The notes below the pieces were generated by a model. That model ran no database searches. It was not told the origin of the DNA and saw nothing but the letters and a program-made list of their open reading frames with translations. A DNA stretch of 64,000 nt from Candidatus Eremiobacterota bacterium (lineage in GTDB: Bacteria; Vulcanimicrobiota; CADAWZ01; Ess09-12), in assembly GCA_031082125.1 (NCBI GenBank), contig JAVHLM010000004.1, forward strand, positions 133,294-197,293. The letters run 5' to 3'. The translations under genes were made by a program, and so were the position numbers. The stretch's first letter is position 1. Each line of letters opens with the position of its first letter. Positions 1,647 to 49,789 of this stretch are shown here, piece by piece.

Positions 1647-1856
1647 CTCTATTGGAAATTTTCAAAAATCATTTATGCATGCCTGTATATCTGCCCTCCC
1701 TGCAAAATGGGCAGGAGAAGCCTGAAAGCACCTTTTGACAGCCGTTAAAGCCCATTGGAGTCATTTTTGTCATCTTTACCTCCTTTTGTTCTCCAGCGGG
1801 CATCCTGCGATAGTCTTGAAAGCCTTATACTATGAGCTTTTTACTATGTGCTCTAT

Positions 1857-1891
1857 TTGCAATCTGCCTTCCAGTATGCTATAATTATCAC
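1857..1891 (+). promoter_or_regulatory. Sigma70-type promoter of HNH gene copy 1, leaderless
   Basis: TTGCAA (1857-1862), a 17-bp spacer and TATAAT (1880-1885) are followed only 6 nt later by the ATG at 1892. A transcript starting about 7 nt after the -10 box would begin at the start codon. The paralogue at 49526 has the same geometry. No Shine-Dalgarno sequence fits between the -10 box and ATG. Confidence 0.65.
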
Positions 1892-4375
1892 ATGGATACA
1901 TTTGTGACCCATCCCATTCACTCTATGTTCCTCCCTGATGAAGAGGAGCTTCTTCACCTCAATGACACTTTGATTTCTCAGGACTCTTCTCAGGAACTTG
2001 AGGACATGCTCCTTCTCCCCGAGCCTTATGAGATTCCCGAAGGGACCCCATGCAGGCCGGAGCACCTTGTCAAGATCACCAGGGAAGGCCTCATCCCCGA
2101 AGCGGAGAAGATCACGGAGGATATCTCCTTCGGCTCCATCGACAGGGAAGAACGGGCTTCCATGATTGATTTCACCCTCTGTGAGGCAGTCCGCGGCCGC
2201 CTGGCACTTGATCTTGCACTCGGCGGCCTTCTCGTCACTCTTAAAACGAAAGGGGTTGATCAGTTAGGATACCGCTCCATGGGGACCTTCGCCACGGAGC
2301 ATCTCTCTTTCTCGGGGCGCACCGCGTCGGAGCTGATGCACAACTTCGAGCTGCTCAAGGCGCTGCCCCTCACCCGTGAGGCATATCTGCATGGAAAAAT
2401 CGCAAAGAGCGCTCTCAGGCATCTCTCGAGGGTCGCAACGCCTGAGAATGAGTCCTGGTGGCTCGCCATTGCAAAGGAGCGCTCCCTGTGCGGCCTTGAG
2501 CAGGAAGTGAAAAGGGCCCTCGCTGAAGGGAAGGCCGATGGGGCTCCCGGTTCTGAAGGAAGTCTGCGCGCAGCGGGCGGGGCGTGCGATGATGCGCACG
2601 GTGACGAGGCTGAGGGCACGATGATGTATTTCAGCGTGCCGCCCTCCCTTGCCCTCACCTGGGACTTCGCCCTCTCCCTCTTCCGGGACAAAGAGCACTA
2701 TGACGGGCCTGTCTCAGGATTTGTCGAGGCGCTCCTCGCCAATTTCCTGGCCTCGGGGAAAGCCGCCCCGGAGCTCCCGGCCCTCGATAGCGAGGGGAAT
2801 CGCCCCATATTCTCACGGGTGCCCCTCCTGAAAAGGAGGATGAGAAACCGGCGTGTGAGCGATCCCGATGAGGTTGTCGGGCATGCCTTCGGAGGCCTTT
2901 CCTTCAGCTCTCCCTGGGAGCAGCCCTGGAGCATCCATTTCCCGTCGTGGCTGGAAGAGGCCCGGCCGGGAAGAGACGCCGGGAGCTCCGCAAGGGCGAT
3001 TGCGGGGAGGCTCATCAGGGCCGCCTCCATCCGTCAGAGGCTCGACGTGGCCGCGGGAATGCTGCTCCGGGCCCTGGACGAGAGGCAGCTCCACCGCCTT
3101 CTCGGCTATGAGTTCATCGAGGACTATGCAGGGGAGCGCTGCGGCTTTTCGATGGCCCAGACCCGCCAGCTCATCAGGCTCGCCGAGGGCTTCCGGCGCC
3201 ACTCCCTCACTGAAGACGCCTTCAGGAAAGGTGTCATCACCAGGGAGCAGGCACGCCTCATCCTCCCCCTCGTGGACTCCAGGAATGAATCGCAATGGAT
3301 TGCCTATGCCGCGAGCGTGCCCACGGCTGATCTCAGGGAAGAGGCGGGGCGTGTCGCCCGGATCCTGGAGTATGACTGCCTGGTCCCCCACAATTATGCG
3401 CTCCTTCCCGGCTTCCGCTACGTCACCGACGAAAGGTTTCACGACCTGCCGGAGGAGGTGCAGGACATCATAAGGACTGGGTCCTGGTACACAGGCCCTT
3501 CCCTCAATCCTTCGTGGCCTCTTGAGTCAGACGACGAGGAACTCGTCGCTTCCCGCGACAGGCGCTTTGATGTGCCCTGGAAGTATTTCAGCGATGTCGA
3601 TGAGCTGCGCGCCGCCGAGGCATCCAAGAAAATTGAAAAAAACTCCAGGCTGTGTGCGGGCCTCGGAAATCGGTCGGGGAGCGATCATCTCTATGCGGGG
3701 GCATGCAATGGGGAGAAGCAGGCACCTCATGGGCAAGGATGCGAAAATGCCCTGTGCTCGTGTCATCAGTCACTGGAAAAAGCCCGGGAAGCCTGCACCA
3801 TTCCCCGGGGTGAGAGCCCCGAGGAGGTCTTTCTCAGGGACATCCTCTCATCACAAGACCCCTTCCGGGCAGTGAAGGGCGCCATGATGATCAAGTTCTT
3901 CCTCCCCCGGGAGCTTGAGGTGCTCTGGAACCTCGCGGCCCACATCTTTCTCGCCAGGCTCTCCCAGGTGGAAGGCGCCGAAAGCCTCATCAACCCCGAA
4001 GAAAAATTCCTTGCCGCCCTCCTCGCAGACTACCTCGCCACAGAGGGGCACTTCCCCAATGCTGCCCATCACCATAAAATACTGAAGCGCGACCGGTTCC
4101 GCTGCCAGGTCCCCGGCTGCCGCTGCCGCAGGAACTTACACGTTCACCACATCATCAGGCGCTCCCAGGGCGGCAGCGATGATCCCTGGAATCTCATCAC
4201 GCTCTGCGAGGCTCACCATCTCCATATTCTTCACAATCTCAGGACTCTCACCATAAGGGGCCATGCGCCTCACTGCCTTACCTTAGCTTTTGGCTCCCTC
4301 TCAGAGAATAATCCCTTCCTGGCATATGAGAGAGGGATAAGATTGAAAAACACGGAGCTTATGAGGTCTGCATAA
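1892..4375 (+). CDS. HNH endonuclease-like protein with duplicated DUF222-like module (copy 1)
   Basis: 827 residues from the ATG at which both copies in this window start to align (MDT, then FLPDEEELLHLND). The C-terminus is a typical HNH nuclease domain: RDRFRCQVPGC, then LHVHHIIRRSQGG, then NLITLCEAHH, with the Cys pairs and His residues expected for a zinc-stabilised beta-beta-alpha-metal fold. Upstream an entire module occurs twice: a helical part (RLALDLALGGLL / RQRLDVAAGMLLRAL) followed by a GxMMxxFxxPxxLxxxW part. This arrangement resembles DUF222/13E12-repeat proteins but is about twice the usual length. Such genes are multicopy in other bacteria; their role is not established. Low-complexity linkers separate the modules. 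Confidence 0.85.
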   Translation: MDTFVTHPIHSMFLPDEEELLHLNDTLISQDSSQELEDMLLLPEPYEIPEGTPCRPEHLVKITREGLIPEAEKITEDISFGSIDREERASMIDFTLCEAVRGRLALDLALGGLLVTLKTKGVDQLGYRSMGTFATEHLSFSGRTASELMHNFELLKALPLTREAYLHGKIAKSALRHLSRVATPENESWWLAIAKERSLCGLEQEVKRALAEGKADGAPGSEGSLRAAGGACDDAHGDEAEGTMMYFSVPPSLALTWDFALSLFRDKEHYDGPVSGFVEALLANFLASGKAAPELPALDSEGNRPIFSRVPLLKRRMRNRRVSDPDEVVGHAFGGLSFSSPWEQPWSIHFPSWLEEARPGRDAGSSARAIAGRLIRAASIRQRLDVAAGMLLRALDERQLHRLLGYEFIEDYAGERCGFSMAQTRQLIRLAEGFRRHSLTEDAFRKGVITREQARLILPLVDSRNESQWIAYAASVPTADLREEAGRVARILEYDCLVPHNYALLPGFRYVTDERFHDLPEEVQDIIRTGSWYTGPSLNPSWPLESDDEELVASRDRRFDVPWKYFSDVDELRAAEASKKIEKNSRLCAGLGNRSGSDHLYAGACNGEKQAPHGQGCENALCSCHQSLEKAREACTIPRGESPEEVFLRDILSSQDPFRAVKGAMMIKFFLPRELEVLWNLAAHIFLARLSQVEGAESLINPEEKFLAALLADYLATEGHFPNAAHHHKILKRDRFRCQVPGCRCRRNLHVHHIIRRSQGGSDDPWNLITLCEAHHLHILHNLRTLTIRGHAPHCLTLAFGSLSENNPFLAYERGIRLKNTELMRSA
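2183..2872 (+). repeat. 690-bp tract shared with HNH copy 2 (inverted copy at 48558-49247)
   Basis: Reading both copies, this stretch is identical to the reverse complement of 48558-49247 with no indel, while the flanking coding sequence is clearly diverged (for example Val-Val-Gly-His against Ser-Asp-Gly-Gln right after it). Translations of several frames across the block agree, which supports identity at DNA level. Confidence 0.85.
3434..3742 (+). repeat. 309-bp second identical tract shared with HNH copy 2
   Basis: Identical to the reverse strand of copy 2 around 47690-48000, and bounded by mismatches at 3433 and 3743. The region between this tract and the 690-bp tract is very similar but carries scattered substitutions. 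The mosaic pattern suggests gene conversion between the copies. Confidence 0.75.
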
Positions 4376-4511: not shown

Positions 4512-7391
4512 CTACTGGGCGTGCCCCACCGTGGGATCCATGTACCAGTAATTGTTTCCGAACTCGCCGAGCCTTACTCCCCATGTATACTGAGGTGGCT
4601 GTGAGTCTGGTATCTGCACCCGCTCGGCCGTCACGACGCCGCTGGGATTGCAGGAGAACTGGGGCCTGCCCTGGGGATCATACCCCATGAACCTGGTATT
4701 CTCACCCTGGGTGGCCTGGCCGTTGTGGGCAGGGTCGGGGTTCCTGAAATAGACGTAATCATTGGGCCTCAGGATCTTGCTCAAGTCCTTGTTCTTGTCG
4801 GCATCAACATACTGGCGCTCCTCGGTTCCTCCGCCGGGCTTGGGTGCCTGGACCTTCAACGGGTCAGGTATTGCACGGTAGTCCTGGCTTCCCCTGTCAT
4901 CGATGCGGCCGCCTGTATTGTCGGAATACTTGTGCCACCCGTTCATCATCAGGTTGGGATACTGCCTGTTGAAGGCTTCATCGCCCATCTGGAGAAGCTG
5001 CTCATACATGCCGGCCATATGGACCGGTGTGGCACAATCGGCCTGATATCTGCCATTCCCTTCAAACATACTCCTGACGGCCTGCGAAGGCGAGACATCA
5101 TCAGCCGTACCGGCTCTTCCGTCGGCGCCTTCAGTCCTCACGGCGTACATCTTCTTCTCCGGATTCAAGGGATTTGGTACTTCCTTCCAATAGCGCGGAT
5201 CATACTGCTGGTTATTCATATCCCCGTTGAATCCCACTCTCCCGCTCTGGACTGACTGGCCAAGGGCCGATGATGCCTGGATACCCTGCTGGACCTTGTT
5301 GATGTCATTGACATTCTGATCAGAGAGAACTATTTTCTTGAATGTATCCCCGTCCTTGTAATAGAGGGTATCCCCGGGGTTGAACTTCCCGTCTCTGTTG
5401 GCATCGGATATTCTTATGTCCTGAGGCTTCACGTTGGGGGGAAGGCCCAGGGTGGAGCCAAGCTGCTGGGTGTACTGAAGGGCTTCAACCCTGTCATCGA
5501 CTCTGTTCCCGTTCCTGTCATCCTGCCGCGTTGAAGGCAGCCGGTTCTGGTTGAGCTGGTTATATTCCTGCTGAGTAATATTCACAGGGACGCCTGGCTG
5601 TGTGCGCGGCGGATCCTGGCCCGGAGGAGGTGTAGGCTGCGGCGTCGGCTGCGGCGTCGGCTGTGGCGTAGGCTGCGGTGTCGGCTGGGGCGTAGGCGGC
5701 TGCTCACCTGGAGGAGGTGTAGGCTGCGGCTGCGGTGTGGGCTGCGGTGTGGGCTGCGGTGTGGGTTGAGGCAATGGCTGAGGCTGCGGCGTAGGTTGAG
5801 GCATCGGCTGCGGCAAAGGCTGAGGCTGCGGCATAGGTTGAGGCATCGGCTGCGGCAAAGGCTGAGGCTGACCACCACCTGAAGGCGGAGCAGGCTGAGG
5901 CTTATAGCCGCCACCACCAGGGGGAGGTGCAGGCTGCGGTGCGGGCTGCGGATTCGTTCCCTGGTTGTTCTGGCGCTGCATCTTCATCATCTGCTCCACG
6001 CCTTTTACCTGAAAGTCCATCATATTTACAAGACCGCCTGCCATCTGCACCATCTGGTTGAACTGGGTTTGATCCATATTCCCCTTGTTTGCAGAGAGCA
6101 TATTTACCATCTGTGAAAGCATCTGCACCTGGCTCTTCAGGTCTTTGATCATCTGATCAATCTGCTTGTCTGCCGCATTTTCATTAGGCTTATCATTGGG
6201 CTTCACATTTGGTGTCTGGTTGGGACCCTGGTTCGGAGTCTGGTTAGGCCCCTGATTTGGTGTCTGGTTAGGCCCCTGATTCGGTGTCTGGTTAGGCCCC
6301 TGATTCGGTGTCTGGTTAGGACCCTGATTCGGAGTCTGGTTGGGACCCTGGTTCGGCGTCTGGTTAGGCCCCTGATTCGGCGTCTGGTTAGGCCCCTGAT
6401 TCGGTGTCTGATTGGGACCCTGATTAGGCCCAGGCCCCGGCGGGTGATGCGGCGGATGGTGAGGCCCCTGGTTCGGAGTCTGGTTAGGACCCTGATTCGG
6501 AGTCTGGTTAGGACCCTGGTTCGGAGTCTGGTTAGGACCCTGATTCGGCGTCTGGTTAGGACCCTGGTTCGGTGTCTGGTTAGGACCCTGGTTCGGCGTC
6601 TGATTGGGACCCTGATTCGGAGTCTGGTTGGGACCCTGGTTCGGAGTCTGATTGGGACCCTGATTAGGCCCAGGCCCCGGCGGGTGATGCGGCGGATGGT
6701 TGGGACCCTGGTTCGGCGTCTGATTCGGCCCCTGATTCGGCGTCTGGTTAGGCCCCTGATTCGGCGTCTGATTCGGCCCCTGATTCGGCGTCTGATTCGG
6801 CCCCTGGTTCGGTGTCTGGTTGGGACCCTGGTTCGGTGTCTGATTCGGCCCCTGATTCGGTGTCTGGTTAGGCCCCTGATTCGGAGTCTGATTCGGCCCC
6901 TGGTTCGGCGTCTGGTTAGGACCCTGATTCGGAGTCTGATTCGGCGTCTGGTTAGGTCCCTGGTTCGGCGTCTGGTTCGGCCCCTGATTCGGTGTCTGGT
7001 TAGGACCCTGATTCGGCGTCTGGTTAGGACCCTGGTTCGGAGTCTGATTCGGTCTCTGGTTCGGCCTCTGGTTCGGCGAAGTCCTCCGGTCGAGGGCGCC
7101 GTTCCAGGCCGAAGCAAAACTGCTCAGTGGTGACCCATCTTCAGCGGTCTGCGTGGCATCCCGGCTGTCACTTGCACTGAGCTCCCTGCTGGGCCTGAAA
7201 GCTTCTCTTGCCTGCTCCGACCTTCCAAGCCCCGCTGTTTCGCCAGCCCTCGCCTTGCTTTCAATGCCGGCCGCCGATGATCCTGAACTCTCCTGCGCGG
7301 TGCGCGCCGGAGGGGTATAGACCTCTCTCGAGGAGCTGCTCCCTGATGAGCTTTTTACTTCATCCACCTTTTCCACGTTATCATCTGACAT
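4512..7391 (-). CDS. Asn/Gln/Pro-repeat protein with transglutaminase (Tgl)-like C-terminal domain
   Basis: 959 residues, with AAAGGAG about 9 nt before ATG. Layout: disordered Ser-rich N-terminus (1-100); about 290 residues of the 8-residue repeat GPNQTPNQ, interrupted twice by [16 protein letters not shown]; a Met/Gln-rich probable coiled coil (about 400-475); a Pro/Gln-rich tract (476-600); and a folded C-terminus (605-959) containing an EF-hand-like loop [12 protein letters not shown]. The C-terminus has DCATPV (Cys786) and, later, YVYFRNPDP followed by [10 protein letters not shown] (Glu897). From memory these match the catalytic Cys and Glu regions of Bacillus spore-coat transglutaminase Tgl (NCATAI; YFKNPD...WQGEN). 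Inference: a protein-crosslinking enzyme carrying its own glutamine-rich substrate. No signal peptide is visible, so its location is unclear. The Tgl match needs a profile search. Confidence 0.6.
6205..7075 (-). repeat. 24-bp in-frame tandem repeat encoding GPNQTPNQ
   Basis: About 35 units of 24 bp lie inside the coding frame. Units differ mainly at third codon positions (Pro CCT/CCC/CCG, Thr ACT/ACA/ACG, Asn AAT/AAC) while the peptide stays nearly constant, so the protein repeat appears to be under selection. A distinct spacer encoding [10 protein letters not shown] recurs at 6421-6460 and 6661-6700, exactly 240 bp (ten units) apart, revealing a higher-order duplication. Because 24 is divisible by 3, other frames also stay open through the array; those ORFs are artefacts. 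Confidence 0.9.
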
Positions 7392-35003: not shown

Positions 35004-35893
35004 TGCGCAAGGGCCTCGCGGTTGACAAGTATCCTGACCTGCGAGCGTTCCTCGTTTGAAAAGTCTGATTTTATGAGGTTGATCACGGCATCGGCATCGG
35101 CCTTGTTGCAGTTGCTGAGGTTAAGGAGCACGCCTTCCCCTTCACCGAGATCATGACGGAGCTTGACGAGAATATGAGGAGCGTCAAAAGACCATCTCGC
35201 GCCTTGAGGCGGGGAGAGGGGGCTTTTTACGTCCCATGGGGCCCCTTTTCCATCAATAAATTCCGCGGCGCCAGTCGCTTCCCTCGTGACCGTGGGCGGC
35301 ACCACGCCGCATGCTTCGGCATAGGCGCCGACGGCGGCCTCTTCTATCGATCCGGGCGTGATCTTTTTTCCCTTGGCGGGGTCGCTTGCAAGCTCCTCAG
35401 CCCTGTCCTTGAGCTGCGGGAGCGCACCGAGTGCTTCACCTGCGCTTGATTTTCCGGTGGGATCCAGCGACCCGTCATCCTTCATGGTGCACCAGCCGCA
35501 TGTCGCTGCAATTGTGCTGTACCTGTCAACGAAAGTGCTGACAGTGCGGCTTTCTCCCGGTGCGGGAGCATCGGCAAAAAGGGCAATTGATTTGCCGCCG
35601 TTCGTCATGACATATGACGCGCCTGTGGTATGGTCCTTGAGAGGCGCCTGGGGAGCGGGTTTTGAAGGCGCCCCGGCAGGCTTATTCCTCTCTCCGTGTT
35701 TCGACTTGTGGTGATGGTCTTTCCCGTGAGACTTTCTTGCCGCTTCGGAGAGGACCGCTTCCTCGCAAGGCTGGGCCTCCTCCTGTCTCGCCTGCTCCCG
35801 GGGGGCCTTTTCCGTCATCCCATGGGAGGGAACATTCAATGGCTCCCTGGTCTTCCAGGAGCTTCCTATGGAAAAATTGTCGCCGCTGATCAT
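35000..35893 (-). CDS. Hypothetical protein with possible nuclease-toxin-like C-terminus
   Basis: 297 residues, with GGGGAGG before ATG. The first 100 residues look disordered (charged, His/Lys-rich HGKDHHHKSKHGE, then Pro/Ala). A middle region holds CGWC. The last 90 residues contain GKGAPWDVKSPLSPP, then GEGVLLNLSNCNKADADAV and SQVRILVN. The DVKxP core followed by a Leu-Asn-Leu strand reminds me of restriction-like/CdiA-type toxin nuclease domains, but this is memory, not a search. Coupling by 4 nt to a pentapeptide gene would fit a toxin/partner pair. There is no signal peptide. It could equally be an unrelated conserved hypothetical. Confidence 0.65.
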   Translation of the reverse strand: MISGDNFSIGSSWKTREPLNVPSHGMTEKAPREQARQEEAQPCEEAVLSEAARKSHGKDHHHKSKHGERNKPAGAPSKPAPQAPLKDHTTGASYVMTNGGKSIALFADAPAPGESRTVSTFVDRYSTIAATCGWCTMKDDGSLDPTGKSSAGEALGALPQLKDRAEELASDPAKGKKITPGSIEEAAVGAYAEACGVVPPTVTREATGAAEFIDGKGAPWDVKSPLSPPQGARWSFDAPHILVKLRHDLGEGEGVLLNLSNCNKADADAVINLIKSDFSNEERSQVRILVNREALAQ

Positions 35894-35915
35894 TAAAGCC
35901 TCCCCTGGGGCATTT

Positions 35916-36989
35916 TCAGAGCCCCGAGCTCTCCAGAGAACTGCTCACTGCAGGGTCCTGGGCCGTGACGGTGTAATTCTTCGTGGGATATGATTTCATC
36001 TGGGCCTTGATAATCTTCTTCGAGTCCTTGTCAACATAGAAATTGACGCCGCCCACGTAATTGCCGTAGCAGCCTGCCTCCACTATGTAGGTCCTGTGAG
36101 GCATGGGGCCCGTGCGCAGCGATGTCTTGTGAAGCTCATGATCATGGCCGAGGACCATCAGGTCGATGTCGGGAAGGCGCCTGGCCAAGTCCTTGAACTC
36201 CTTGATATCGGTATATCCCTTGTGCATGAGGGCCACCACGATGTCGGCGCCCTCTTTCTTCGCCTGCGCAACCTCGCTTTGAAGGGTCTCGTATTCCGGG
36301 AACACTATGAGATCATCACCTGTATCGGGGTGATCAGGTGTCGCCATCTTCGTGGTGGTGACGCCGATGAAGGCGACCTTCAGGCCGTCCAGCTCCTTCA
36401 TCACCCTTGTTTTTGTGCCGGCCAGGTGCTTGCCGGTCTCCGTGTCATGGACATTTGCGCAGAGCACGTCGGTTTTCACCTGGGTAAAGAAATCTTTGAC
36501 CGCCTCGTCCTTGCCCCACTGGAAGTCGTGGTTGCCCGGCACGATGGCGAAATAACCCGCCTCGTTGATATAATTCTTCACCGAGTCGAAATGGTCGCCT
36601 TCCGTAGGCTTGGCGCTGTAAGCAATGTCGCCGGAGTCAACAAGGATGGAGCTGGGATTGTCCTGTCTCAGGTCTTCTATGAGGGCTTTCAATGCGGGGA
36701 GCTTCTCTTCCATCCCGTGGATGTCGTTGGTATGGAGGATCGTGATTTTCAGGGCATTTTCAAGATCTCCCGTGTCCTGCCCGGCCTTTTCTTCCTCCTG
36801 GAGCTCTTCTTTGCTCCTTGCCGCTTCTTCGGCGCTGGGGGCTGTGTTGTCATTCGCTGCCTTCTTCTCGTAGCTGTCGGTGGGGCCTGTTTCGTCAACA
36901 GGCTTCTCAGCCCTTATGGGGGGCTTCTTCTTGCCGGCCGCCATATCGACGGGGATGAACGATGAAGGAAAATCTACGCCACCGAACAT
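35916..36989 (-). CDS. UshA/5'-nucleotidase-type metallophosphoesterase, no signal peptide
   Basis: 357 residues, with GGAGGAG before ATG. The first 85 residues are charged and probably disordered. All calcineurin-like metal motifs of the 5'-nucleotidase group follow: HTNDIHG, LVDSGDIAYS, VPGNHDFQWG, LMHKGY and LGHDHELHKT. Periplasmic UshA-type enzymes normally have a Sec signal and a C-terminal nucleotidase domain of about 200 residues; both are missing. The substrate is probably a nucleotide or another phosphoester. It is 22 bp upstream of the putative toxin-like gene in the same operon. Confidence 0.85.
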   Translation of the reverse strand: MFGGVDFPSSFIPVDMAAGKKKPPIRAEKPVDETGPTDSYEKKAANDNTAPSAEEAARSKEELQEEEKAGQDTGDLENALKITILHTNDIHGMEEKLPALKALIEDLRQDNPSSILVDSGDIAYSAKPTEGDHFDSVKNYINEAGYFAIVPGNHDFQWGKDEAVKDFFTQVKTDVLCANVHDTETGKHLAGTKTRVMKELDGLKVAFIGVTTTKMATPDHPDTGDDLIVFPEYETLQSEVAQAKKEGADIVVALMHKGYTDIKEFKDLARRLPDIDLMVLGHDHELHKTSLRTGPMPHRTYIVEAGCYGNYVGGVNFYVDKDSKKIIKAQMKSYPTKNYTVTAQDPAVSSSLESSGL

Positions 36990-39146: not shown

Positions 39147-42100
39147 ATGCATCAATTCAAGCTGAAGATTAAATACGGCTTGCCGTCTGGCATGAAGATA
39201 GTTATCTCTCTCATCTTTTTTATGGCACTATGTCTCTTTGGATCACAGGCTGTAAACAAAGAGGCCCGTGGGAAAGAAGGCAAAGGGAGCGATACTATCT
39301 GCATAGGTGTACTTCCTAAACTCAGGCAGACAGAAAAGGACCAGACATTAAAGGCCCTCATGGGACAGCTTTCAGAGATAAACTACATGGTTGAGGTTCA
39401 TACCGTCGATGATTTCTTTGAAAAACTGCATAAAATCGGCTCAGGAGAAAAGAAAATCGGGAATCTGATTCTTCTAGGCCACGGCTCACAGGAGACGCCG
39501 TTTATTACTCTATCTGAAGAGCCTGTGCAAGTTCAGCTCAACCCTGATGATATTGACATAGATAATGATATGAGATATCTCAGATCCGCCATTGAATCAA
39601 GAATCAGTAACAGATTGAAATACTATACGCTCAAATATAAAAAGGAGCTCAGTGAAGAGGAGAAATCTGATCTGGAATTGGCCGAAAAAAGGCTCGAAAG
39701 CTACGATGACAATATAAGGCCTGATTTAATCCGCCGTATAGACAACCTGGATCGATTTGAGAAGGTAAGAACCATTATGGCTCCTGATGCCAGAATCTTG
39801 TTACTGGTATGCTCCGCGGCAGCAACTGCAGAGCACAGAAAGTTTGTCAATAATCTCGGGAAGGTCTTGCTGGGGCAAAAAGGCGGCGCGATTGTCGCTT
39901 CCAAGCAGGACATAACTGTTCCGCAGGCCGCCGGGGAGGGTGATTCTGTTGCATCCGCCCTGTGGGGGGAAGTGAAATGGATTGCAACTATCCTCAAATC
40001 AGGGCAATGGGTGAATCCTGGAGATTTTGCCCCCCTCGGCAGCGGGGTGGATCCCAAGAAGGCATCCTTCTTCAACTATGGAAACTGGACAACCATGAGA
40101 ATCAGCTCCGATGAAGATACAACACCTTACTATAATCCTCTGCTTGTCGAGGCAGAGCCATCGTCAGCTGAAGTTTTCCAGGGGCAAAAAGCAAAGCTCT
40201 CTGTGAAAGTGAAAAAAGCCTTTGACAGCGGAAAATTGACTTACTACTGGAATTTCAGCAATAAAGGAAGCTCAGAAGCCTCATATGTTTTTGATGCGGG
40301 CCCTTATGATGAAAAGCTCGTCAACGTGAGGGTGGAGATTCAGGATGAAAAGGGTCGCAAAGGCTATGACAATGTATTCATATTTGTAAAAAAACAGGAA
40401 TATACTGTTGATATATCACTCTCCAACGCCAAGCCTGCAAAGGACGAGGTTATCAATGCAAAGGCACTCTGCGTGAGAGGCACCCTTCCCAAGGAGAGTC
40501 TCTGGCGCTGGGTGGCTTCAGGCGGCGCTCAGATCATGCCTCGGGGCGACGGGACTAAGAACAATGAAGCCAAGGTCAAGGTCACGGGACAGGGGAAGGT
40601 TACTGCTGTCCTCTACTACCTGGGCGATTTCGGTAAAGAGCACGTGCTTGCCTGCGTGGAAAAAGGAATCATGGCAGGCAAGGAAAGCACTCCGGAGCCG
40701 AGTCCATCGCCTTCTCCCACTCCTTCCCCCACAGGCATTCCTTCCCAGGAGCCCGGGAGCAGCGCCCAGCAAAGATACCAGGAGCACTTCGCCCCCGAGG
40801 CGAAAAAGCTCCACAACTGGCTTATCGATGCATTGAAATACCTTGATGCCCTGAAAGAGCTTGATACCAGGGTGTTTTCAGGGTTTCCCTCGCGGTGCAG
40901 GCCCGATGCCGATGAGGATCGTCACAGCGCGCGCGGGAAAGGCGGGGGAAAGGTTATGACAAAGGAAGAGCTTCTTGCCCTTTATAAGAAGAAGTGCATC
41001 GCCTGGGCATCAACCCGCCATAAAGACGAACAGAAGAAGATGAACGCCGCGAAAGCGGCCATCAATGGATCGGGGCTCCTGGATTTTTCCTCCTCCTGTG
41101 AAGCTTCCGGGGATTATAAGGGATACGTGAACAAGGTGGAAGCGCTGAAGAAAAAGCTCCCTTACCCGGTCCCCGATCCCGTTCCCCCGTCTGTCTCCCT
41201 TACGGATAACTATTATCACAGCTGCGGTTTCTTCGAGGACAAGCCAGGTGCGGCCCCCGTGGCCATCACTCCGTCGGAGAAGCCTTCTCCCACTGAAGAG
41301 AGCGAGCCCCTCTCCGTTGAGCTTGAGGCGTCAAAGGCAAAGCTTGCCCCCGGTGAGGAATCGAAGGTCACGGCAAGAGTCAAGGGGGGAAAGGGGCCTT
41401 ACTCATACGCCTGGAATGACGGCTCCCCGGGGAGCACATCAAGCCATCTTTTCTCTTCTGCCAAGCCGGGTGAATATACAGTGAAAGCTTCGGTGACTGA
41501 CAGCAAGGGCAAAAAGGCTTCGAAAGAGCTCTCTCTCATAGTGGGGGATCTCACCGTGACCATTGAGATGACGGGCGGCGCCCGCACGATCACTCTTGGC
41601 GAGACGGCACAATTCAAGGCGGCCCTCACTTCGGGAGGGAAACCCGTCACCGGGAGCTTTGTGTTCCGATGGCAGTCTGATACCAAGGATTCCTTCGATC
41701 CCGGTGAAGGCGCCGCATCCCAGAGCAAGGTGCGCTTCACCCGCCCCGGGAAGGTGAAGGCATGGGTGGAGGTGTTGGCAAAAAAGGGGAGCGCCCTCAC
41801 TCCTGCGGGCGAATCAGAGCAGCTTGAAGCGGAAGTGGCCGCCCCGGCTCTTTCTCTTGAATTCTCTCCCTCTTCACCCCAGGTGGGAAAAGAGGTTAAA
41901 GCGAAACTCAAGACAGTGCCTCTCTTCAATGAGTGCGAAGCCCGGTGGGAGCTCTCAAGAAATGCGAAGCTCCTCTCGGAATCCAAGGATACCAAGGAAA
42001 TTGTATTCCTGCTCCTGGACAGCACACCGGCCTCATTGACGGCGCGGGTGCGGACCCCTCATTACGGCGATGACCTTGGCGACGCGAGCGGGACCATTCA

Positions 42101-45100
42101 GGCCTCTTCCTACAAGGTTTCTGTCACGGTGCTGGGGCCTTCGGGCCCTCCTCCCAAGGTCTGGAAGGAGGGAAAAGGTCTTGTCGATGCACCCGGCGAG
42201 ATCGCCGTGTTCCAGGATGTGAGGCTCCGCGCCGACATCGAGCCCCTGCCTGAGGGATCTCTCCGCTACCAGTGGAGCCTCAACAGCGGCTCGAGCTTCT
42301 CGGGCAACTCCTCTGCAAAAGAGACGGCGGCCCAGAGAAGCGAGGTGGGAACATGCCAGGCCACGGTGTCAGTGAAAAACGCTGATGGCATGGTGCTCGG
42401 AAGCGGCTCGGGGAGCTTCAGCGTCACCATCTCGCAGGAGGCCCTGAAGAAGGGAAAGGCTGCCGAGGAAGCGGCCGGGCGCTCGAAAAACCTGGCCGGC
42501 CTGATGAAGGAAGCAGCAGGGAAACAGGAAACAAAAGACTACAAGGGAGCGATTGCCGACTATACGAAAGCACTCGATATAAACTCATCTCTCGCTGAGG
42601 CGTGGCACATGAGAGGGGTATGCAAAGGTGAGACCGGCGACAGCAGGGGAGCAGTGGAAGATTACAGCAGGGCCATTGCGCTCACACCGGGCAATGCCGT
42701 CATCTGGTATGACAGAGGTCTCGATAAGAGAAAGATGAACGATCTCGCCGGCGCCATCTCGGACTACAGCGAGGTAATCCGCCTCAGGCCTGATTATACA
42801 AGCGCTTACTATAACAGGGCCATTGCCCTGAGAATGCTTGGCAGGCACCAGGAGGCCATAAAAGATTTCACCAGAGCTGTCGAGCTTGACCCCCGGAAAT
42901 ACACCTCATGGTGCGGAAGAGGTCTTTCAAAGGAAGAGACGGGAGACCTTGAGGGTGCCCTCGCTGACATCAGGAAGGCCCTCGAGATAAAGCCAGACGA
43001 TGCCACGTCCCTGGCAGCCCTCGCGAGGCTTCAGAAGAAGGCCGAGCCCCTCAGCGTGACCCTCTCTCCGAGTGAAGTGAAGGTAAAGACAGGCGAGAAA
43101 ATCACACTTGATGCTCAGGCAAGCGGAGGAAAGCCACCTTACCGGTATGAGTGGTATGCAGGCCCCGCCAGGGATGAGAAAGCCTCAGGCCCCAGGGTCA
43201 CCTGGACTTTTGACAAGCCTCAACAGTTCATTATATCGGTGAAAGTGAAAGACAGCGCCGGAAATGAAGAGAGTACCGCCGGCACTGTGGCCGTGGAAGG
43301 GGCTGCAAAAACCTCGCGGAGTGAGGCAATTAAGTATTATTTACAGGGCGTTACTAAAAATAAGGAGGGGAAGTTCAGCGAAGCCATTGAAAATTTCAAC
43401 AGGGCAATCGAGCTGGAGCCCGATTTTGCCTCAGCTTACGCAGACAGAGCATACAGCAAGAATTCAATCAAAGATTTCAGAGATGCTGCAGAAGACTCGT
43501 GCAAAGCCATCACTTTCAGGAATAACACTGCACTGCCAGATGAATTGAAAGTTTTGAAATATTATCTTGTCTATAATATATTAGGATATTCCTACGATGA
43601 ACTTGGTGATTACAGGAAAGCTATTGACATCTATACAGAGGGGATACGGCTGAAGCCGGACTATCAATCGTTATATCGTAACCGTGGTGTCGTATACTGC
43701 CATCTCGGTGAGCACAAGAAAGCAATAGAAGACTTCAACGAAGCAATAAGGCTGAAGCCTGAGGCCCGTTACTATGCGGCAAGAGGGCGATGCTGGATGC
43801 ACCTTGGCGACAAGGAGAAAGCCCTTGCAGATTCGCAGAAAGCTCTCGAGATTGATCCAGCCGATAATATCGCAAAAGGAGTAATACGTGATATCGGCTC
43901 TCAAAATGTAAAGCCCCTCACGGTAACCCTCTCTCCCCAGGAAGTGAATGCAAAGACCGGTGAGAAAATCACTCTTGAAGCAAGGGCGAACGGAGGAACG
44001 CCTCCCTACACCTATGAATGGTTTGATAACCGCTCAAGGGAGGACATTGTCTCCACTCCCTCCATAAGCTGGACTCCAAGCAGGCCGAGGCAGTTCACTG
44101 AATCGGTCGTGGTGACGGACAGCACCGGGTCACGGGCCAGGGCAGAGTGCGCGGTGAGCGTGCACCATGAAGCGGCACCGGCCCAGGAGCCTGCCGCGCC
44201 TGCCAGTCCGGCAAGCCCTCTCACGGTAACCCTCGATCCCCCGGAACTGAGCGGCCCTCAAGGCCTGAAAGTGAGCCTTGTTGCCCATCCCAGCGGGGGC
44301 GTGCCTCCCTATACCTATGAGTGGTATGAAAACGGGCAGATGGAAACGGAACTCTATCGATCTTCCATACAATGGAACCTTGGGAGTCCGGGAAAGTACA
44401 CCGAATCAGTGATCGTGAGGGACAGCGCCGGGACCACGGCCCAGGCAAACTGCACCGTCACGGTGCAGCAGAAGGCAGCGCCTGCTGCAAGCGCGCAGCC
44501 TCTCACGGTAACCCTCGATCCTCCTGCGCTGAGCGGACCAACGGGCCTGAAAGTGAGCCTCGTGGCGAAACCGAGGGGAGGGGTGCCTCCCTATACCTAT
44601 GAATGGTATTGGAACGGCCAAAAGGAGACGGAGCTCTCTCAATCCTCCATACAATGGACCCTTGGGAATCCGAGACAGTATACCGAATCGGTAATCGTGA
44701 GGGACAGCGCCGGGACCACGGCCCAGGCAAACTGCACCGTATCCGTTGAAGAAAGGCCAGAGCCCACAGTGAAACCCAAAATAGAAGAATTCGGGGTAAA
44801 GCTTGTTCTCAGCGCCGAAGATTCGGCATGTTTATCAAAGGACACCATATATGCAGGCGAAACCATCGAAATAGAAGCCAAGATAATAAAAGGAGGAAGG
44901 CCGCCTTTCCGCTATGAATGGTTCTTTGAAGGAAAAAAGGATGAAAAGCTCAACAACATGGACGCTATCGAAATCAATCTTAAAAAACTGGGCCCTCGCG
45001 AAGTGACAGTCCGTGTTACAGATTCAAAGGATTTCAGCATAGATGTACCAATGAAATTTACCGTGGTGAAAAGAGAAGACACCTCGCCGGGGCCCGCGCC

Positions 45101-45419
45101 CACAAGTGAGCAGATACGTTATGTGAGCAACTTTGCAGGTACCTGGGATACGAACTGGGGAAGGATGGTGCTTAAGGTGGAAGGGGTGTCGGTCTATGGG
45201 AATTATACCCATGACAAGGGAAGAATAAAAGCCACTCTCTCAAATGATGGCAGAACCCTCACAGGCTACTGGAGCGAGGCACCTTCCTACAGGCCCAGCA
45301 AAGATGCTGGGAGAGTGACATTGACTATCTCCAGTGATGGCAATAGCCTTTATGGCACGTGGGGCTATGACAAGAGCCTGGACGGCGGGGACTGGACCGG
45401 CAAGAGAATCTCAAGATAA
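39147..45419 (+). CDS. Secreted 2090-residue protein: clan-CD-like/DUF4347-like domain, PKD and TPR repeats
   Basis: AAGGAGG precedes ATG. A signal-like helix (KIVISLIFFMALCLFGSQA) starts at residue 16. Residues 50-300 resemble DUF4347/caspase-fold proteins: LILLGHGSQETP (His112) and RILLLVCSAAATAEH (Cys222), then GGAIVASKQD; the His-Gly and Cys spacing fits a clan CD dyad. Next come a PKD-like domain (335-425), a Pro/Ser linker, a helical part with eight or so Cys, more Ig/PKD-like domains (720-1110), TPRs (1130-1295), PKD (1300-1385), TPRs (1390-1585), four PKD domains (1588-1976) and a beta-rich C-terminal domain (GTWDTNWGRM ... GDWTGKRISR). It may be a secreted protease or adhesin. The dyad is inferred, not proven. 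Confidence 0.82.
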   Translation: MHQFKLKIKYGLPSGMKIVISLIFFMALCLFGSQAVNKEARGKEGKGSDTICIGVLPKLRQTEKDQTLKALMGQLSEINYMVEVHTVDDFFEKLHKIGSGEKKIGNLILLGHGSQETPFITLSEEPVQVQLNPDDIDIDNDMRYLRSAIESRISNRLKYYTLKYKKELSEEEKSDLELAEKRLESYDDNIRPDLIRRIDNLDRFEKVRTIMAPDARILLLVCSAAATAEHRKFVNNLGKVLLGQKGGAIVASKQDITVPQAAGEGDSVASALWGEVKWIATILKSGQWVNPGDFAPLGSGVDPKKASFFNYGNWTTMRISSDEDTTPYYNPLLVEAEPSSAEVFQGQKAKLSVKVKKAFDSGKLTYYWNFSNKGSSEASYVFDAGPYDEKLVNVRVEIQDEKGRKGYDNVFIFVKKQEYTVDISLSNAKPAKDEVINAKALCVRGTLPKESLWRWVASGGAQIMPRGDGTKNNEAKVKVTGQGKVTAVLYYLGDFGKEHVLACVEKGIMAGKESTPEPSPSPSPTPSPTGIPSQEPGSSAQQRYQEHFAPEAKKLHNWLIDALKYLDALKELDTRVFSGFPSRCRPDADEDRHSARGKGGGKVMTKEELLALYKKKCIAWASTRHKDEQKKMNAAKAAINGSGLLDFSSSCEASGDYKGYVNKVEALKKKLPYPVPDPVPPSVSLTDNYYHSCGFFEDKPGAAPVAITPSEKPSPTEESEPLSVELEASKAKLAPGEESKVTARVKGGKGPYSYAWNDGSPGSTSSHLFSSAKPGEYTVKASVTDSKGKKASKELSLIVGDLTVTIEMTGGARTITLGETAQFKAALTSGGKPVTGSFVFRWQSDTKDSFDPGEGAASQSKVRFTRPGKVKAWVEVLAKKGSALTPAGESEQLEAEVAAPALSLEFSPSSPQVGKEVKAKLKTVPLFNECEARWELSRNAKLLSESKDTKEIVFLLLDSTPASLTARVRTPHYGDDLGDASGTIQASSYKVSVTVLGPSGPPPKVWKEGKGLVDAPGEIAVFQDVRLRADIEPLPEGSLRYQWSLNSGSSFSGNSSAKETAAQRSEVGTCQATVSVKNADGMVLGSGSGSFSVTISQEALKKGKAAEEAAGRSKNLAGLMKEAAGKQETKDYKGAIADYTKALDINSSLAEAWHMRGVCKGETGDSRGAVEDYSRAIALTPGNAVIWYDRGLDKRKMNDLAGAISDYSEVIRLRPDYTSAYYNRAIALRMLGRHQEAIKDFTRAVELDPRKYTSWCGRGLSKEETGDLEGALADIRKALEIKPDDATSLAALARLQKKAEPLSVTLSPSEVKVKTGEKITLDAQASGGKPPYRYEWYAGPARDEKASGPRVTWTFDKPQQFIISVKVKDSAGNEESTAGTVAVEGAAKTSRSEAIKYYLQGVTKNKEGKFSEAIENFNRAIELEPDFASAYADRAYSKNSIKDFRDAAEDSCKAITFRNNTALPDELKVLKYYLVYNILGYSYDELGDYRKAIDIYTEGIRLKPDYQSLYRNRGVVYCHLGEHKKAIEDFNEAIRLKPEARYYAARGRCWMHLGDKEKALADSQKALEIDPADNIAKGVIRDIGSQNVKPLTVTLSPQEVNAKTGEKITLEARANGGTPPYTYEWFDNRSREDIVSTPSISWTPSRPRQFTESVVVTDSTGSRARAECAVSVHHEAAPAQEPAAPASPASPLTVTLDPPELSGPQGLKVSLVAHPSGGVPPYTYEWYENGQMETELYRSSIQWNLGSPGKYTESVIVRDSAGTTAQANCTVTVQQKAAPAASAQPLTVTLDPPALSGPTGLKVSLVAKPRGGVPPYTYEWYWNGQKETELSQSSIQWTLGNPRQYTESVIVRDSAGTTAQANCTVSVEERPEPTVKPKIEEFGVKLVLSAEDSACLSKDTIYAGETIEIEAKIIKGGRPPFRYEWFFEGKKDEKLNNMDAIEINLKKLGPREVTVRVTDSKDFSIDVPMKFTVVKREDTSPGPAPTSEQIRYVSNFAGTWDTNWGRMVLKVEGVSVYGNYTHDKGRIKATLSNDGRTLTGYWSEAPSYRPSKDAGRVTLTISSDGNSLYGTWGYDKSLDGGDWTGKRISR
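44215..44750 (+). repeat. Recently duplicated PKD modules, period about 285 bp
   Basis: Two adjacent PKD-encoding stretches start with the same CTCACGGTAACCCTCGATCC (44219 and about 44502) and share an identical block of about 48 bp ending in the codons for AQANCTV (about 44411-44460 and 44694-44743). Neighbouring PKD units are similar only at protein level. Confidence 0.8.
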
Positions 45420-47024: not shown

Positions 47025-49526
47025 TCATCGAGAAGCCATGGAACCGCCAGAACTCCTCACGAGCCCCTTTTCATAGACCAGGAAAGGAGTGCCTTCCGAG
47101 AGTGAGCCGAAAGTAAAGGTGAGCTCGTAAGGCGCCCTGCCCTTCACGGTGAGGGTCCGCAGATTGTGGAGGAGGTGGAGGTGGCAGGCTTCGCAGAGCA
47201 CAATGAGGTTCCAGGGGGCATCGGTGCCGCCCTGGGAGCGCCTGATGATATGATGCACGTGGAGGCCCCGCCGGCACCGGCAGCCGGGGGTCTGGCAGCG
47301 GAAGCGGTCACGCCTGAGAATTTTATGGTGATGGGCCGCCTTTTTCAAGGTTCCCTCGGTGGTGAGATAGTCGGCTAGAAGGGCGGCAAGGAATTTCTCT
47401 TCCGGGTCCCTCAACAAATCACCGGAGGTGTCGGCGCCCTCTGCCTTGGCAAGCCTGGCGAGAAAGAGGTGAGCCGCCAGATCCCAGATCCCCTGGAGCT
47501 CCCGGGGAAGGAAGAACTTGATCATCATGGCGCCCTTCACTGCCAGGGAGGGGCCCCCTGCCTTGGCCGGGCTGCCTTCCGAGAGAATGTCCCTGAGAAA
47601 GACTTCTTCTGGGCTCTCTCCCCGGGGGATGGTGCAGATCTGCCGGGCTTTTTCCAGCGACTGATGACAGGAGCACAGGAGATTTTTGCATCCTTGCCCA
47701 TGAGGTGCCTGCTTCTCCCCATTGCATGCCCCCGCATAGAGATGATCGCTCCCCGACCGATTTCCGAGGCCCGCACACAGCCTGGAGTTTTTTTCAATTT
47801 TCTTGGATGCCTCGGCGGCGCGCAGCTCATCGACATCGCTGAAATACTTCCAGGGCACATCAAAGCGCCTGTCGCGGGAAGCGACGAGTTCCTCGTCGTC
47901 TGACTCAAGAGGCCACGAAGGATTGAGGGAAGGGCCTGTGTACCAGGACCCAGTCCTTATGATGTCCTGCACCTCCTCCGGCAGGTCGTGAAACCTCTCG
48001 TCAGTGACGTAGCGGAAGCCGGGAAGGAGCGCATAATTGTGAGGGACAAGGCAGTCATATTCCAGGATCCGGGCGACACGCCCCGCCTCTTCCCTGAGAT
48101 CAATCGTGGGCACGCTTGCGGCATAGGCAATCCATTGCGATTCATTCCTGGAGTCCACGAGGGGGAGGATGAGGCGTGCCTGCTCCCTGGTGATGACACC
48201 TTTCCTGAAGGCGTCTTCAGTGAGGGAGTGGCGCCGGAATCCCTGGGCGAGCCTGATGAGCTGGCGGGTCTGAGCCATCGAAAATCCGCAGCACTCCCCT
48301 GCGTAATCCTCGATGAACTCATAGCCGAGAAGGCGGTGGAGCTGCCGCTCATCCATCGCCCGGAGGAGCATTCCCGAGGCCACGTCGAGCCTCTGGCGGA
48401 TCGAGGCGGCCCTCCGGAGGCGATTCGAAATCGCCCTTGCGGAGCTCCCGGCGTCTCTTCCCGGCCGGGCTTCTTCCAGCCACGACGGGAAATGGATGCT
48501 CCAGGGCTGCTCCCAGGGAGAGCCGAAGGCCTGGCCTTCGCCGTCCTGCCCGTCGGACTCATCGGGATCGCTCACACGCCGGTTTCTCATCCTCCTTTTC
48601 AGGAGGGGCACCCGTGAGAATATGGGGCGATTCCCCTCGCTATCGAGGGCCGGGAGCTCCGGGGCGGCTTTCCCCGAGGCCAGGAAATTGGCGAGGAGCG
48701 CCTCGACAAATCCTGAGACAGGCCCGTCATAGTGCTCTTTGTCCCGGAAGAGGGAGAGGGCGAAGTCCCAGGTGAGGGCAAGGGAGGGCGGCACGCTGAA
48801 ATACATCATCGTGCCCTCAGCCTCGTCACCGTGCGCATCATCGCACGCCCCGCCCGCTGCGCGCAGACTTCCTTCAGAACCGGGAGCCCCATCGGCCTTC
48901 CCTTCAGCGAGGGCCCTTTTCACTTCCTGCTCAAGGCCGCACAGGGAGCGCTCCTTTGCAATGGCGAGCCACCAGGACTCATTCTCAGGCGTTGCGACCC
49001 TCGAGAGATGCCTGAGAGCGCTCTTTGCGATTTTTCCATGCAGATATGCCTCACGGGTGAGGGGCAGCGCCTTGAGCAGCTCGAAGTTGTGCATCAGCTC
49101 CGACGCGGTGCGCCCCGAGAAAGAGAGATGCTCCGTGGCGAAGGTCCCCATGGAGCGGTATCCTAACTGATCAACCCCTTTCGTTTTAAGAGTGACGAGA
49201 AGGCCGCCGAGTGCAAGATCAAGTGCCAGGCGGCCGCGGACTGCCTCGCAGAGCAGAAAATCAATGCGCGCTGCCCGCTCGTCCCTGTCGATTGAGCCGA
49301 AGGAGATATCCTCGGTGAGCTTTTCCGCTTCGGGGATGAGGCCCTCCCTGGTGAGCTTGACGAGGTGCTCCGGCCTGCAGGGCCCCCCCGCGGGAAGCTC
49401 ATAAGGCTCCGGCAGGAGCAGCATGTCCTCGTAATCCTGAGAAGACAAAGAATCGTTGAGGTGAAGAAGCTCTTCTTCATCGGGAAGGAACAGGGCAGCA
49501 ACGGAACGGGTCTCATGTGTATCCAT
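47025..49526 (-). CDS. HNH endonuclease-like protein with duplicated DUF222-like module (copy 2)
   Basis: 833 residues from the ATG that aligns with copy 1 (MDTHETRSVAALFLPDEE). Same architecture: two helical/MMxxFxxP modules and a C-terminal HNH (RDRFRCQTPGC, LHVHHIIRRSQGG, LCEACH). Here the last motif is CH where copy 1 has HH. The DNA is identical to copy 1 over 690 and 309 bp but diverged in the N-terminus, the variable linkers and the nuclease domain. It is in the opposite orientation to copy 1, about 45 kb away. Confidence 0.87.
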   Translation of the reverse strand: MDTHETRSVAALFLPDEEELLHLNDSLSSQDYEDMLLLPEPYELPAGGPCRPEHLVKLTREGLIPEAEKLTEDISFGSIDRDERAARIDFLLCEAVRGRLALDLALGGLLVTLKTKGVDQLGYRSMGTFATEHLSFSGRTASELMHNFELLKALPLTREAYLHGKIAKSALRHLSRVATPENESWWLAIAKERSLCGLEQEVKRALAEGKADGAPGSEGSLRAAGGACDDAHGDEAEGTMMYFSVPPSLALTWDFALSLFRDKEHYDGPVSGFVEALLANFLASGKAAPELPALDSEGNRPIFSRVPLLKRRMRNRRVSDPDESDGQDGEGQAFGSPWEQPWSIHFPSWLEEARPGRDAGSSARAISNRLRRAASIRQRLDVASGMLLRAMDERQLHRLLGYEFIEDYAGECCGFSMAQTRQLIRLAQGFRRHSLTEDAFRKGVITREQARLILPLVDSRNESQWIAYAASVPTIDLREEAGRVARILEYDCLVPHNYALLPGFRYVTDERFHDLPEEVQDIIRTGSWYTGPSLNPSWPLESDDEELVASRDRRFDVPWKYFSDVDELRAAEASKKIEKNSRLCAGLGNRSGSDHLYAGACNGEKQAPHGQGCKNLLCSCHQSLEKARQICTIPRGESPEEVFLRDILSEGSPAKAGGPSLAVKGAMMIKFFLPRELQGIWDLAAHLFLARLAKAEGADTSGDLLRDPEEKFLAALLADYLTTEGTLKKAAHHHKILRRDRFRCQTPGCRCRRGLHVHHIIRRSQGGTDAPWNLIVLCEACHLHLLHNLRTLTVKGRAPYELTFTFGSLSEGTPFLVYEKGLVRSSGGSMASR

Positions 49527-49532
49527 GATTAT

Positions 49533-49561
49533 ATCATAGCATATCAGCCGGAAAACATCAA
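49533..49561 (-). promoter_or_regulatory. Sigma70-type promoter of HNH gene copy 2, leaderless
   Basis: On the minus strand TTGATG (49561-49556), a 17-bp spacer and TATGAT (49538-49533) are followed after 6 nt by ATG (49526). The geometry is the same as in copy 1 although the spacer sequence differs, which argues that the arrangement is maintained. Confidence 0.65.
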
Positions 49562-49789
49562 ACAGGCTGCCCCTCTCAAACCTTATCACAGAGAGGATAA
49601 AAGGCTATCGCCAGATGGCCGAAGGATGGCCCGAAAGGGGCGAATAGGTCAAAAATGACCCTGAACGCCATAAAGCGTGAACCAGCGAAGGACCAGGCCG
49701 GTTTCCCCGCGTTTCAGGTCCAGTCTGCCGTCGGGCGTAAGGTTTTTTGCGCGGGAAGAATTTTATTGCTCCTGACCGAACCTGTCGAT

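What the first reader, a model, noticed from the sequence alone, without database searches (positions are those of the whole stretch)
4512..7391. Gln-rich tandem repeat fused to a transglutaminase-like domain: candidate self-crosslinking protein
One protein carries about 35 copies of GPNQTPNQ, a Pro/Gln-rich tract and, at its C-terminus, sequence resembling Bacillus Tgl (Cys786 in DCATPV, Glu897 in QGEN, YFRNPD). Gln-rich repeats are the classic glutamine donors of transglutaminases (for example involucrin and gliadins, established knowledge). An enzyme that brings its own substrate could build a crosslinked coat, matrix or filament. I know of no described protein with this design. Without a signal peptide, export or internal use is open.
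Basis: partly seen in the sequence, partly recalled or inferred. Interest (0 to 1): 0.8.

Follow-up and report, generated by a model that had tools for sequence, protein, structure and literature searches.

The report
Repeat-armed bacterial transglutaminase with partner gene
A bacterium outside the known spore-formers carries a protein-gluing enzyme of the Bacillus spore-coat type attached to a very long repetitive arm; the same design recurs in distant relatives, nearly always beside the same unknown partner gene, which suggests a dedicated cross-linking system, although the repeat is not always made of glutamine as first proposed.

Summary
ORF 4512-7391(-) encodes 959 aa with 66 PNQ tetrads (29 exact GPNQTPNQ), a Pro/Gln tract and a C-terminal domain that belongs to Pfam TGL (PF20085, E 5e-13, above cut-off). 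A family profile finds Bacillus Tgl structures at 4e-18. C786 and E897 match Tgl C116 and E187; Tgl E115 is Asp here and H200 is Asn.

The fusion is not a one-off. Of 149 phylum genomes, six have the domain; all seven copies sit behind a tandem array. The own genome has a second copy with a LysM and an annexin-like repeat, and a third PNQ-repeat protein made of annexin repeats. An unnamed ~180-residue protein family occurs in exactly those six genomes, always next to a TGL gene; only the window copy lacks it.

The "brings its own glutamines" idea is only partly supported: two relatives have glutamine-free arrays (GPNA, ANPNAG), and three have Thr in place of E187. Best reading: a transglutaminase that welds a network of PN-repeat proteins at the cell envelope, the repeat being mainly an extended spacer that also serves as glutamine donor in this lineage. 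Activity and location are untested. New variant of a known kind.

The parts
4512..7391 (-). Whole gene: 959-aa PN-repeat transglutaminase-like protein, no signal peptide
   Evidence: RBS-like AAAGGAGTG upstream
6222..7076 (-). PNQ tandem array, residues 106-390: 66 PNQ tetrads, (T/G)PNQ alternating, two PPHHPPGPG spacers
   Evidence: variation concentrated at third codon positions
5922..6191 (-). Residues 401-490: Met/Gln/Lys-rich, probably helical segment with 7 Lys, possible acyl-acceptor site (inference)
   Evidence: composition; weak coiled-coil-type Pfam hit at E 0.16
5592..5921 (-). Residues 491-600: Pro/Gln tract (PQPTPQP type)
   Evidence: the same tract precedes the TGL domain in the paralogue
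4515..5579 (-). Residues 605-959: TGL domain region; Pfam TGL match at residues 762-905
5034..5039 (-). D785-C786 (DCATPV): equivalent of Tgl E115-C116; both invariant in 7 of 7 homologues
4698..4709 (-). QGEN 895-898: E897 is the equivalent of Tgl E187 (Glu in 4 of 7 homologues, Thr in 3); N898 of N188, invariant

Best explanation
The protein is a Bacillus-Tgl-type (PF20085) transglutaminase domain carried on a long, probably disordered Pro-Asn repeat arm. Shown: the domain, its Cys (and Glu in this copy), the recurring fusion, the linked partner family, and the sharing of the repeat with a LysM-TGL protein and an annexin protein of the same genome. Inferred: the enzyme is active, forms a Cys786 acyl-enzyme with glutamines, and welds PN-repeat proteins (itself, the LysM-TGL paralogue, the annexin protein) to one another through Lys outside the arrays. 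The arm acts as an extended reach or spacer and, in this lineage, also as an abundant glutamine donor. LysM and annexin modules would anchor the network to peptidoglycan and membrane. The partner protein is probably a regulator or inhibitor, or else a preferred substrate. Step estimates: TGL homology 0.97; catalytically active 0.6; acts on PN-repeat proteins 0.4; repeat glutamines are the main donor 0.25.
For: PF20085 over its cut-off in all seven copies; the control search rings only in B. subtilis. Invariant D-C-A and Q-G-x-N; the Tgl residues C116, E187, N188, Y171 and W149 are all present in the window copy (roles of these residues in PMC6490927). Purifying selection on the domain: dN/dS 0.04 between two congeners, 0.16 between the two own-genome paralogues (the latter dS is near saturation). 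PNQ arrays occur in only three genes of a 7.4-Mb genome: two TGL genes and one annexin gene. The LysM-TGL paralogue carries an annexin-like repeat (29.1 bits, cut-off 25) and an N-terminus similar to that of the annexin protein (41% over 59 aa). In Bacillus, Tgl cross-links SafA, also a LysM protein (PMC6490927).
Against: Tgl E115 is Asp in all seven homologues and H200 is Asn or Ile, while E115A and H200A abolish B. subtilis Tgl activity (PMC6490927). Three relatives lack E187. Gln is absent from the arrays of G046 and G026. No signal peptide or export route was identified. No usable 3D model was obtained. Co-assembly of the three PNQ proteins is inferred from shared sequence only.
Confidence: 0.42

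Rival explanations
1. Active transglutaminase, but the PN array is only a flexible spacer or adhesive stalk; substrates are other envelope proteins, polyamines or peptidoglycan amines, and repeat glutamines are incidental.
For: The Pro-Asn core is kept while Gln is replaced by Ala in G046 and G026. Array length varies from about 32 units to more than 120. Arrays contain almost no Lys.
Against: Gln is kept in nearly all PN repeats of both own-genome TGL proteins and in all 13 TPNQ of the annexin protein, which a pure spacer would not need.
Confidence: 0.3
2. Effector-immunity pair: the C-terminal cysteine enzyme is an effector or toxin domain on a long repeat stalk and the adjacent gene is its cognate immunity protein or inhibitor.
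For: The partner family occurs in exactly the six genomes that have the domain, always adjacent, and directly downstream in the four loci of the large-genome family, with no other neighbour shared across lineages.
Against: The window copy has no partner. Orientation flips (convergent in two loci). The domain is under purifying rather than diversifying selection. No known trafficking domain was found, and the own genome has neither a T6SS sheath nor a contractile sheath. The PNQ repeat also sits in a non-enzymatic annexin protein.
Confidence: 0.12
3. The domain has lost or changed chemistry (inactive scaffold, peptidase or deamidase of the NlpC/P60-like fold), for example acting on peptidoglycan in the LysM paralogue.
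For: E115 to D and H200 to N or I in all homologues, E187 to T in three. The LysM in the paralogue suggests a cell-wall location.
Against: Cys and the preceding acidic residue are invariant in 7 of 7; Y171 and N188 equivalents are invariant. No invariant His of the kind NlpC/P60 peptidases use is seen in the alignment.
Confidence: 0.16

Closest known systems
Bacillus Tgl spore-coat transglutaminase (PF20085; PDB 4p8i, 4pa5, 7c9j)
   Same: Homologous domain by Pfam and PDB profile searches; catalytic Cys and E187, N188, Y171 and W149 equivalents present in the window copy; no signal peptide.
   Different: Tgl is a small stand-alone enzyme of spore-formers; this one is fused to a ~600-aa repeat region. 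Asp replaces E115 and Asn replaces H200. Spo0A is not detected in the genome. It falls far below NCBI's equivalog cut-off (44 against 307 bits).
SafA, LysM morphogenetic protein of the Bacillus coat and a Tgl substrate
   Same: Works-like parallel: the own-genome paralogue puts a LysM matching the SafA-type profile (54.7 bits, below the 67.85 cut-off) and a Tgl-type domain in one polypeptide.
   Different: Not a member: below cut-off, different repeat region, enzyme and LysM fused.
Involucrin and other Gln-rich-repeat transglutaminase substrates (own knowledge)
   Same: Repetitive, Gln-rich, disordered; annexins are also found among cornified-envelope substrates (own knowledge).
   Different: No homology; here the enzyme is on the same chain; Gln is not conserved in relatives' repeats.
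Bacterial annexins (PMC3894181)
   Same: Own-genome C10 and C14 proteins have annexin repeats with GxGTDE or GxGTNE motifs; the C10 protein carries the same TPNQ array.
   Different: PMC3894181 does not mention transglutaminase. The link to a TGL protein via shared repeat and N-terminus is new here.

Membership tests
PF20085 TGL (Bacillus-type transglutaminase) | Profile score above the curated cut-off | tested here: met
   49.3 against 23.7 bits; all 7 homologues match
PF20085 TGL (Bacillus-type transglutaminase) | Catalytic Cys116 | tested here: met
   C786, invariant in 7 of 7
PF20085 TGL (Bacillus-type transglutaminase) | Glu187 | tested here: met
   E897 in the window copy; Thr in three relatives
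PF20085 TGL (Bacillus-type transglutaminase) | Glu115 | tested here: not met
   Asp785; Asp in all homologues (conservative replacement)
PF20085 TGL (Bacillus-type transglutaminase) | His200 (needed for activity on substrates) | tested here: not met
   Aligns with Asn915; Asn or Ile in homologues
PF20085 TGL (Bacillus-type transglutaminase) | NlpC/P60-type fold with active-site tunnel | tested here: inconclusive
   AlphaFold pLDDT 40 and 38 with 2-sequence alignments; Foldseek uninformative
PF20085 TGL (Bacillus-type transglutaminase) | Transamidase activity | not testable with these tools
   Needs biochemistry
Spore-coat Tgl ortholog (NF002869) | Equivalog score and sporulating host | tested here: not met
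   43.7 against 307 bits; no Spo0A_C in the own genome while the B. subtilis control rings
   Arrays GPNA (G046) and ANPNAG (G026) lack Gln; Gln is kept within the own genome
Polymorphic toxin-immunity pair | Cognate adjacent gene for every copy | tested here: not met
   Partner next to 6 of 7 copies, absent at the window copy

The most novel reading that the evidence does not exclude
A bacterial covalent envelope or matrix built by self-substrate transglutaminases and membrane-binding annexins that share one Pro-Asn-Gln repeat, with LysM anchoring and a dedicated, previously unnamed partner protein that restrains or guides the enzyme: a prokaryotic analogue, by convergence, of a transglutaminase-sealed coat outside spores.
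Probability: 0.2. Interest if true: 0.85.

Novelty: new variant of a known kind. Interest (0 to 1): 0.62.

Why it matters
Bacillus-type transglutaminases are understood as spore-coat enzymes. A recurring repeat-armed form with a linked partner family, in genomes without detectable Spo0A, would be a second biological use of this enzyme class. The link through a shared repeat to a bacterial annexin gives a concrete, testable hypothesis for what bacterial annexins do. The repeat-enzyme fusion is also of practical interest as a self-assembling cross-linker.

Tried and rejected
Relatives fetched by the genome search were not sent to the folder because its stated rule does not list them. The genome-contig scan found only the G046 contig, with restrictive exact patterns, so distribution outside the phylum is unknown; viral contigs and plasmids had no relative. 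The partner family has no significant Pfam or PDB match. A first codon-position count on motif-selected units was circular and was replaced by unfiltered units. An endospore-coat reading was rejected for lack of Spo0A. T6SS or contractile delivery in the own genome was not supported. Literature searches for transglutaminase or annexin together with Eremiobacterota found nothing.

Full report
Observation. The 959-aa ORF at 4512-7391(-) is real. It starts behind an RBS-like AAAGGAGTG. Residues 106-390 hold 66 PNQ tetrads, including 29 exact GPNQTPNQ units, in three blocks separated by two PPHHPPGPG spacers. Comparing unfiltered in-register 24-nt units, 371 of 515 differences fall on third codon positions, so the protein sequence of the array is being kept.

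The domain. Residues 762-905 match Pfam TGL at 49.3 bits against a cut-off of 23.7 for the C-terminal part. The PDB matches are Bacillus transglutaminases, at 1.1e-6 and 0.012 with the single sequence and 3.7e-18 and 1.6e-10 with a seven-member profile. From those alignments, Tgl C116, E187, N188, Y171 and W149 correspond to C786, E897, N898, Y881 and W819; E115 is D785 and H200 is N915. In B. subtilis, C116A, E115A and H200A abolish activity while E187A keeps about 60% because E115 can substitute (PMC6490927). The invariant Asp at the E115 position could fill that role, but this is inference.

Recurrence. Searches of 149 genomes of the phylum find the domain in six, including the own genome, whether with the family profile or with Pfam TGL; the control search rings only in B. 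subtilis. Every copy lies behind a tandem array: PNQT/GPNQ in the two own-genome copies, GPNA in G046, (A/S)EPNQG in G044 and G018, ANPNAG in G026, and GGNAQPGVN in G050, where the contig ends inside the array. Pro-Asn is the common core in all but G050. Gln is not: the G046 and G026 arrays have Ala there. D-C-A and Q-G-x-N are invariant in all seven; QGEN is QGTN in G044, G018 and G026. dN/dS is 0.04 between G044 and G018.

A linked partner. A ~180-residue protein lies next to the TGL gene in all six other loci, roughly 21-39% identical between lineages, directly downstream on the same strand in the four loci of the large-genome family f12 and convergent in the own-genome C17 locus and G046. 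A profile of it hits exactly the six TGL-bearing genomes, once each. No other gene is shared between these neighbourhoods, apart from genes common to the two congeners. It has no significant Pfam or PDB match; one member, in G026, has an evident signal peptide (sequence). The window copy lacks a partner.

Link to annexins. In the own genome, PNQ arrays occur in three genes only: the window gene; the C17 gene, which carries a LysM (Pfam 1.1e-12) between two arrays; and a C10 gene with two annexin repeats, a TPNQ array and two more annexin repeats. The C17 TGL protein also has an annexin-like repeat over the cut-off, and its N-terminus resembles that of the C10 protein. Annexin repeats occur in six of 149 phylum genomes, three of which (own, G044, G026) also have TGL. 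So a transglutaminase and an annexin share repeat, N-terminus and module in this lineage. That they act together is inference.

Host. The phylum is probably Eremiobacterota: one phylum member is a single 3.5-Mb contig, which fits Vulcanimicrobium alpinus (3,508,363 bp, PMC9758169), and the 8-Mb family fits Eudoremicrobiaceae (own knowledge). This is a guess from sizes. Spo0A_C is absent from the own genome and the seven others searched.

Mechanism. The best-supported reading is a Bacillus-type transglutaminase on a long extended arm that cross-links PN-repeat proteins into an envelope-associated network. The arm's glutamines are plausible donors here but cannot be the general purpose of the fusion, because relatives lack them. 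The partner is most simply a regulator or inhibitor of a potentially dangerous cross-linker, or a substrate. An effector-immunity pair is possible but less likely: the window copy is unpaired, orientation is not fixed, and selection is purifying. None of these steps has biochemical support yet, and no usable structure model was obtained. A caveat on all arrays: these are probably assemblies from metagenomes, and array lengths may be collapsed or expanded by assembly.

Noticed in passing
L008:353-4114 (+) (G000:C17): Second TGL protein of the genome: annexin-like repeat, >120 TPNQ units, LysM inside the array, TGL domain 61% identical to the window copy.
   Followed up: yes
L008:4199-4795 (-), L013:3445-4050 (-), L009:1812-2375 (-) and others: Unnamed ~180-aa protein family found only next to TGL-repeat genes, in 6 of 149 phylum genomes; no Pfam or PDB match.
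   Followed up: partly
L048:379-2202 (+) (G000:C10): Annexin x2 - TPNQ array - annexin x2 protein; the same repeat as the transglutaminase.
   Followed up: partly
L094:3453-5984 (-) (G000:C14): Further annexin proteins with Pro/Ala linkers and a related N-terminus; the assembly has a run of N inside.
   Followed up: no
L095:2010-6437 (+), L097:2575-7386 (+): In large-genome relatives, annexin repeats are fused to a C-terminal segment that looks papain-like by eye (KGTCSATT ... HAVSAYHVDDEFVYIRNPWG).
   Followed up: no
window 1832-4372 (+) and 47028-49589 (-): Two HNH-type proteins 87% identical overall, with long stretches that are nearly identical, suggesting recent duplication or gene conversion 45 kb apart; the HNH part scores weakly against IscB.
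   Followed up: partly
G044:C35:10162-12715 and 35492-36829: Contractile-sheath proteins about 23 kb from a 2751-residue annexin-containing open frame; possible injection-system cargo.
   Followed up: no
window 44217-44740: 282-bp tandem duplication (84% match) inside the 2090-aa TPR-containing ORF 39147-45416.
   Followed up: no
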